Below, piece by piece: positions 21,872 through 22,730 of a DNA stretch of 32,622 bases (positions within the stretch are counted from its first letter, which is position 1; every line of letters starts with the position of its first letter). The stretch lies in the NCBI GenBank assembly GCA_029098125.1, contig JAQXNS010000121.1, positions 1 to 32,622 on the forward strand. Direction: 5' to 3'. The stretch comes from a bacterium (lineage in GTDB: Bacteria; Bacillota_I; Bacilli_A; RFN20; CAG-826). The translations under genes were made by a program, and so were the position numbers. The notes below the pieces were generated by a model. That model made no database searches and was not told the origin of the DNA. It worked only from the letters and a program-made list of their open reading frames with translations.

Positions 21872-21901
21872 TTGTATTTACCTTGTTTTTATGGCTAAAA
21901 T
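21872..21901 (+). promoter_or_regulatory. Putative promoter of the small RNA upstream of DUF3800
   Basis: TTGTAT (21872-21877), 18-bp spacer, TAAAAT (21896-21901). Confidence 0.4.
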
Positions 21902-21907
21902 ATTGGT

Positions 21908-22006
21908 GCAGGTAAATAGTACGCTGTATACACATGCAATCGAATTAACGTTTAAGCGATATGTAATATCGTCGACCATGTGGCCATCTTCGGATGGTTT
22001 TTCTTT
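21908..22006 (+). ncRNA. Candidate structured ncRNA/leader upstream of the DUF3800 gene, ending in a UUCG-capped terminator-like hairpin
   Basis: CGATAT gta ATATCG hairpin (21957-21971), then GCCATC ttcg GATGGT TTTTC. Locally less AT-biased than its surroundings, with no supported ORF. 3' boundary from the terminator; 5' boundary inferred from the promoter. Confidence 0.55.
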
Positions 22007-22022
22007 ATAAGGAGTGTATTTT

Positions 22023-22730
22023 ATCAATATTTTTATCTATTCAGATGAATCAGGTGTTTTTGATAAAATACACAACGATTATTTTGTTTTTGGTGGTTTA
22101 ATTTGCATTGGTAAAGAATCGAAAGATATTATGAGCAGAAAATATTCTCATGCTGAAAATGTTGTTCGAGAAACTGTTCGTAACAAGAATCAAGAAATCA
22201 AAGCCTCAACTATTTCAAATAAGAATAAGGGTAAGTTGTTTAGATCTTTAAATGAATGTCACAAATTTGGAGTAATTATTAAAGAAAAACAAATTTTAGA
22301 ATCAATTTATGGTGATAAGAAGAGCAAACAAAGATATCTTGATTTTGCTTACAAAATCGCTGTAAAAAAAGCATTGGAAAATTTAATAAAAAACAAAATT
22401 ATTGTTCCTGATGATGTTGAAAATATTTATTTTTATGTCGATGAACACGCAACAGCAACGAATGGACTTTATGAATTAAACCAATGCCTCGAACAGGAAT
22501 TAATTTTTGGTACTTTCAATTTTAATTACGATGCATATTATCCCCCTTTATTTCCAAAAGCAAAATCTGTTGTGGTTCAATTTTGTAATTCAAGCAAAAC
22601 CTTGTTAGTTAGAGCGGCAGACATTATTGCGAATAGACTTTATAATTTGATGATTAGAGATATGAAATCATCAATCGAGACTATTTCTAATATGTATATT
22701 CTTGAACTTCCGCCTTCACATCTTTGCTAA
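22023..22730 (+). CDS. DUF3800-family protein (apparent non-AUG start; ORF track begins at GTG 22014)
   Basis: 'FIYSDESGVFD...DYFVFGGLICIG', 'YFYVDEHATA', 'RAADIIANRLYNL' are DUF3800-like. AAGGAG (22009-22014) is 8 nt upstream of the ATC codon at 22023. Confidence 0.8.
   Translation: MNIFIYSDESGVFDKIHNDYFVFGGLICIGKESKDIMSRKYSHAENVVRETVRNKNQEIKASTISNKNKGKLFRSLNECHKFGVIIKEKQILESIYGDKKSKQRYLDFAYKIAVKKALENLIKNKIIVPDDVENIYFYVDEHATATNGLYELNQCLEQELIFGTFNFNYDAYYPPLFPKAKSVVVQFCNSSKTLLVRAADIIANRLYNLMIRDMKSSIETISNMYILELPPSHLC

What the first reader, a model, noticed from the sequence alone, without database searches (positions are those of the whole stretch)
21872..22730. Structured RNA with its own promoter and terminator directly upstream of a DUF3800 gene
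Seen: a promoter-like pair (TTGTAT-N18-TAAAAT), about 95 nt of non-coding sequence with a CGATAT/ATATCG hairpin, a UUCG-capped hairpin with a T tract, then AAGGAG and a DUF3800 ORF keeping SDESG, VDEH and late Asp motifs. Established, from memory: comparative RNA searches described several different DUF3800-associated RNA motifs of unknown function. DUF3800 proteins are suspected nuclease-like, mobile or defence-linked proteins. Inference: this is an RNA-protein module such as an RNA antitoxin, a guide, or a leader whose terminator gates expression, and it may be a new or diverged motif class.
Basis: partly seen in the sequence, partly recalled or inferred. Interest (0 to 1): 0.78.

Follow-up and report, generated by a model that had tools for sequence, protein, structure and literature searches.

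The report
DUF3800-I RNA and its nuclease partner
A short, strongly structured RNA of an already catalogued family sits beside the gene for a predicted RNase H-type nuclease; relatives carried by prophages show that the two travel together in any order, which fits an independent RNA partner of that protein, probably its antitoxin, better than a leader of its messenger.

Summary
In detail: window 21901-22008 is a structured RNA with a terminator, followed by an intact DUF3800 gene. It is not a new motif class. It matches Rfam RF02969 (DUF3800-I) at 95 bits, E 3.7e-14. What it does is unpublished as far as the library searched shows. Comparative work here narrows the mechanism. Among 77 loci with a full-length gene and a matched RNA, the RNA lies within 169 nt of the domain: upstream in 43, downstream on the same strand in 28, and convergent in 6. 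Position follows protein clade with only three changes on the tree. Nearly all carry their own sigma-70 -10 box and terminator. That excludes a general leader or attenuator role. Structure covaries strongly, no guide-length variable segment exists, and the RNA has no special complementarity to its own gene's start. Several genomes keep the RNA with a broken or absent gene; three mycoplasma-type genomes have a lone gene and unlinked RNAs. The protein is modelled as an RNase HII-like fold with invariant acidic residues. The pair often sits between lysis genes and integrase of prophages, the slot of the AbiF/RCd22 toxin-RNA antitoxin. Best reading: a trans-acting RNA partner, most likely an antitoxin, of a prophage-borne nuclease. 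Toxicity and binding are untested.

The parts
21872..21901 (+). sigma-70 type promoter of the RNA: -35 TTGTAT (21872-21877), 18 nt, -10 TAAAAT (21896-21901)
   Evidence: sequence; weak alone, but the -10 position is conserved in 94 related RNAs
21901..22008 (+). DUF3800-I RNA (RF02969); predicted 5' end near 21907
   Evidence: cmscan 95.1 bits, E 3.7e-14; custom model R1 93.3 bits
21907..21928 (+). helix P1 (UGCAGGUA...UAC-G-CUGUA)
   Evidence: covariation: 7 of 8 pairs change on both sides
21931..21982 (+). helix P2 closing a multiloop (21931-21936 with 21977-21982; 21940-21942 with 21973-21975)
   Evidence: covariation
21943..21952 (+). small hairpin P3 (AAU UAAC GUU), followed by near-invariant unpaired UAA 21953-21955
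   Evidence: covariation of 21944-21951; near-invariant UAA
   Evidence: 97% of cells paired, all pairs change on both sides
21982..22008 (+). intrinsic terminator: GGCCATC-TTCG-GATGGTT and T tract
   Evidence: 1 found, 0.0 expected
22009..22014 (+). Shine-Dalgarno sequence AAGGAG, directly after the RNA, leaving no room for a separate promoter between terminator and gene
   Evidence: sequence
22023..22730 (+). DUF3800 protein (235 aa), intact, probably starting at ATC 22023 (or GTG 22014 inside the SD); predicted RNase HII-like nuclease with invariant D8, S10, G11, E58, K60, D140, S190, D200
   Evidence: PF12686; invariant columns; AlphaFold2 pLDDT 91.5 and Foldseek best hit RNase HII

Best explanation
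The locus is a two-component RNA-protein module. A sigma-70 promoter makes a ~95-100 nt structured RNA (DUF3800-I) that ends at its own terminator. The neighbouring gene makes an RNase HII-like nuclease. In the window's clade the gene is probably reached only by read-through of the RNA's terminator, so RNA should exceed protein. The RNA acts in trans, as a folded RNA bound by the protein and not by base pairing. Most likely it holds the nuclease inactive (RNA antitoxin, as RCd22 does for AbiF) until phage infection or loss of the RNA frees it. Shown here: family membership, structure, promoter and terminator, linkage, order-independence, predicted fold, prophage setting. Inferred: trans action, binding, inhibition, toxicity, trigger.
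For: RNA placed upstream (43), downstream same strand (28) or convergent (6) of the gene, never more than 169 nt from the domain, following protein clade with 3 changes on the tree, shuffled mean 26.9. 47 of 51 viral loci have the RNA, and the other four are cut at a contig end. Own -10 box at a fixed place in 94 copies. Very strong covariation (score 0.570 against 0.06-0.09 for slid partners). Intact clade genes first without an Rfam hit (G290 C4, G271, G232) do have a weakly scoring RNA-like sequence next to them, judged in part by eye. Genes with no adjacent RNA (G412, G376, G364) sit in genomes with RNAs elsewhere. RNA kept beside broken genes (G147, G367, G351, G116, G286) or with no gene in the genome (G197, G256, G510, G398, G508, G496). 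No cognate complementarity to the gene start. RNase HII-like model. Prophage slot next to holin-endolysin or integrase in all three clades. Precedent: AbiF/RCd22 has the same layout and slot and acts in trans by RNA-protein contact (PMC12373285).
Against: No toxicity, binding or cleavage data exist. An RNA that is a required cofactor or activator of the nuclease would give the same linkage and order-independence. RNAs found without a gene were picked by a model that rewards intact structure, so their integrity is partly selection bias, and several score low (24-45 bits). Downstream and convergent layouts do not guarantee RNA in excess of toxin, as the classic type III operon does. No pseudoknot, as found in known type III antitoxins, was detected. 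The window copy is chromosomal with no phage genes among the ten neighbours scanned.
Confidence: 0.5

Rival explanations
1. The RNA is a required cofactor: protein and RNA form a ribonucleoprotein whose nuclease works only with the RNA bound, for example as an anti-phage effector.
For: Tight linkage and order-independence, as for known RNA-nuclease pairs; conserved unpaired UAA and UGUAA; DUF3800 proteins accompany some CRISPR effectors (PMC10910872, PMC12669027).
Against: A cofactor should decay once its enzyme is lost, yet the RNA with promoter and terminator is kept beside broken genes and in genomes without the gene, and as a five-copy array. Detection bias weakens this point.
Confidence: 0.27
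2. The RNA is a cis-acting leader (attenuator or riboswitch) of the DUF3800 gene, its terminator gating expression.
For: In the window clade the RNA ends at the Shine-Dalgarno sequence, so the gene needs read-through. Read-through control may still be a secondary feature there.
Against: 34 of 77 loci have the RNA downstream or on the other strand; many copies stand alone.
Confidence: 0.08
3. The RNA is a programmable guide for the nuclease (OMEGA- or CRISPR-like).
For: RNase H-type nuclease next to a structured RNA; tandem array of five RNAs in G376.
Against: No unpaired variable stretch of guide length: variable bases lie in covarying helices or short loops.
Confidence: 0.04
4. Type I antitoxin: the RNA base-pairs with the gene's mRNA and blocks translation.
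For: Convergent layout in one clade gives 3' overlap potential.
Against: Duplex energies of cognate RNA and gene-start pairs are no better than swapped pairs in the two large layouts (mean rank 0.54, 0.54; 0.43 in the six convergent ones).
Confidence: 0.03
5. The RNA and DUF3800 form a mobile element of their own (homing or transposon-like).
For: Patchy: 7 of 26 genomes of the genus; multiple dispersed copies in G472 and G410.
Against: Placement is explained by carriage on prophages, satellites and plasmids. No empty site could be compared, because the upstream neighbour is not conserved in the genus.
Confidence: 0.05

Closest known systems
DUF3800-I RNA, Rfam RF02969
   Same: Full-length match at 95.1 bits over a cut-off of 44.2; same structure; next to a DUF3800 gene.
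   Different: Nothing that would set it apart; the window RNA is an ordinary member.
AbiF/RCd22 of C. difficile prophage phi027 (abiF motif RF03085; PMC12373285)
   Same: ~100 nt RNA from a SigA promoter, terminator, read-through into the effector gene, prophage lysis-module slot; RNA active in cis and trans there.
   Different: Unrelated protein (Abi_2, Cas13-linked, against RNase HII-like) and a different Rfam RNA family; in DUF3800-I the RNA can also lie downstream or convergent; toxicity not shown.
Type III toxin-antitoxin systems (ToxIN, CptIN, TenpIN; PMC5086642)
   Same: RNA, terminator, nuclease gene in one unit in the window clade.
   Different: Known antitoxins are tandem repeats with pseudoknots and act on ToxN-type toxins; here a single multibranched RNA, no pseudoknot detected, RNase HII-like fold, variable order.
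CRISPR type V/VI loci with DUF3800 accessory proteins (PMC10910872, PMC12669027)
   Same: RNase H-fold DUF3800 protein.
   Different: There DUF3800 is an accessory of Cas12 or type VI loci; no Cas gene was seen among the annotated or scanned neighbours here (not searched systematically).

Membership tests
DUF3800-I RNA (RF02969) | covariance model score above the curated gathering score | tested here: met
   95.1 bits against 44.2, positions 1-115 of 115
DUF3800-I RNA (RF02969) | near a DUF3800 gene | tested here: met
   PF12686 gene starts 15 nt after the RNA
DUF3800 protein (PF12686) | Pfam gathering score | tested here: met
   48.1 bits against 21
Type III toxin-antitoxin | RNA, terminator and toxin gene in a bicistronic unit from one promoter | tested here: met
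   by sequence layout in the window and 42 other loci; not in the 34 downstream or convergent loci; transcripts not measured
Type III toxin-antitoxin | antitoxin made of tandem repeats | tested here: not met
   single RNA unit at the window; a five-copy array only in G376, away from any gene
Type III toxin-antitoxin | pseudoknotted antitoxin RNA | tested here: inconclusive
   the 11 top covarying pairs all lie in the nested helices, no pseudoknot pair seen; invariant bases could still form one
Type III toxin-antitoxin | toxin of ToxN fold | tested here: not met
   RNase HII is the best structural match
Type III toxin-antitoxin | protein toxic, neutralised by direct RNA binding | not testable with these tools
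   needs growth and binding assays
Type I toxin-antitoxin | antisense complementarity of RNA to toxin mRNA | tested here: not met
   cognate duplexes no better than swapped ones; only the gene start was tested
RNA-guided nuclease (OMEGA/CRISPR-like) | variable guide segment in the RNA | tested here: not met
RNase HII-like nuclease | RNase H fold with an acidic cluster | tested here: met
   pLDDT 91.5, Foldseek E 2.4e-6 to 1eke, TM 0.56; invariant D8, E58, D140, D200; geometry of the site not inspected

The most novel reading that the evidence does not exclude
DUF3800-I is a new class of RNA-antitoxin system with an RNase HII-like toxin, in which the RNA gene need not precede the toxin gene; free-standing copies and arrays of the RNA in mycoplasma-type and other genomes act as guardian RNAs that neutralise the nuclease of incoming prophages or plasmids.
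Probability: 0.2. Interest if true: 0.75.

Novelty: new member of a known kind. Interest (0 to 1): 0.5.

Why it matters
DUF3800-associated RNAs are catalogued without a known function. Order-independence, unlinked copies, the prophage slot and the RNase HII-like model turn 'unknown' into a small set of testable options. If the antitoxin reading holds, it adds a toxin fold and a free-order layout to RNA-controlled phage-borne systems.

Tried and rejected
Cis leader, programmable guide and antisense pairing were each tested and disfavoured. Empty-site comparison in the genus failed because the upstream epimerase is not conserved. No solved structure matches by sequence. PADLOC has no match for the window protein. 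Viral scans with the window protein alone or with the full alignment A2 gave nothing usable. Among more distant DUF3800 proteins, 15 of the 18 loci scanned have no DUF3800 RNA that Rfam detects within their flanks. The lower-scoring RNA candidates at L087 and L089 were judged partly by eye.

Full report
What is there. Cmscan places the known family DUF3800-I (RF02969) at 21901-22008 on the + strand, full length, 95.1 bits against a gathering score of 44.2. It is the only Rfam match in the window above threshold and the only copy in the genome. The ORF that follows is an intact PF12686 protein. The terminator is well above chance. The promoter is not, if judged on this sequence alone, but the -10 box stands at the same place in 94 related RNAs.

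Structure. Ninety-one related RNAs (86 distinct) aligned to a model built here give a covariation score of 0.570 against 0.06-0.09 when partners are slid; 26 of 27 pairs change on both sides. A ranking of all column pairs by covariation puts eleven pairs of the structure first and shows no pseudoknot. That alignment was fitted to the structure. In the plain MAFFT alignment P1 and P4 already show compensatory changes. The conserved unpaired bases are UAA before P4 and UGUAA in its loop.

Layout. The key result is that the RNA does not keep its place. Among 77 loci with a full-length gene and a matched RNA, the RNA is upstream on the same strand in 43, downstream on the same strand in 28, convergent in 6, and never more than 169 nt from the domain. 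The 77 were chosen for having an RNA match, so the linkage rate comes from other counts: of 51 viral loci found through the protein alone, 47 have the RNA and the four others stop at a contig end. On a protein tree the layouts need three changes against 26.9 for shuffled labels. The convergent clade also carries an inserted Cys4 cluster.

Linkage in genomes. In 296 genomes of the class, the strong relatives of the protein lie beside an RNA found by Rfam, except three genes (G290 C4, G271, G232), and these have a weaker RNA-like sequence in the expected place. Three mycoplasma-type genomes (G412, G376, G364) hold a gene with no RNA nearby but RNAs elsewhere; G376 has five in tandem, each with its own promoter and terminator. 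The reverse is common: RNA beside a broken gene or with no gene in the genome. Their promoters and terminators are mostly kept: -10 at least 4 of 6 in 22 of 28, against 16% at other offsets, and a T run in 28 of 28. Detection by a structure model biases this comparison.

Protein. AlphaFold2 on 40 relatives gives pLDDT 91.5. The best solved match is RNase HII, 1eke, E 2.4e-6, TM 0.56. D8, S10, G11, E58, K60, D140, S190 and D200 are invariant across 30 and across 40 sequences. The resemblance of SDESG to the RNase HII DExG motif is recalled from memory and was not tested. An RNase H fold of DUF3800 was reported before (PMC10910872).

Setting. Annotated relatives follow holin and endolysin-type genes in prophages or prophage-like plasmid records of Enterococcus, Ligilactobacillus, Exiguobacterium and Fructilactobacillus, lie near Cro/CI and integrase in streptococcal phages, and near the end of a satellite phage. 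Unannotated viral contigs of all three clades show endolysin or integrase neighbours. The window copy lies among chromosomal genes.

Mechanism. Leader, guide and antisense models are disfavoured as stated under rivals. What remains is a folded RNA that works with the protein in trans, either as inhibitor or as cofactor. Retention of the RNA without the gene, read-through dependence of the gene in the window clade, and the similar layout of AbiF/RCd22, where toxicity and trans neutralisation were shown (PMC12373285), favour an inhibitor. This is inference; no experiment on DUF3800-I was found in the library.

Noticed in passing
L054 6425-7355 (G376:C1:718426-719346, - strand): Tandem array of five DUF3800-I-like RNAs, each with its own TATAAT-like box and terminator; no DUF3800 gene within about 7 kb.
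   Followed up: partly
L017, L019, L049 (G197, G256, G510): RNA copies in members of the window's family whose genomes hold no DUF3800 relative; the copies are G+C-rich.
   Followed up: partly
window 22009-22030: The DUF3800 gene lacks an ATG/GTG/TTG at normal spacing from AAGGAG; ATC 22023 aligns with the Met of relatives. 10 of 43 upstream-type loci use GTG or TTG.
   Followed up: partly
L031 3619-4681 and L032 2619-3681: In two streptococcal phages a Cro/CI-like gene overlaps the start of the DUF3800 gene by 8 bp, with the RNA downstream.
   Followed up: no
L013, L015, L018, L024, L026: The convergent-layout clade carries an inserted Cys4 cluster before the conserved EIK motif.
   Followed up: no
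L060, L061, L062 (G472) and L064, L065 (G410): Dispersed, equally scoring copies of the module within one genome.
   Followed up: no
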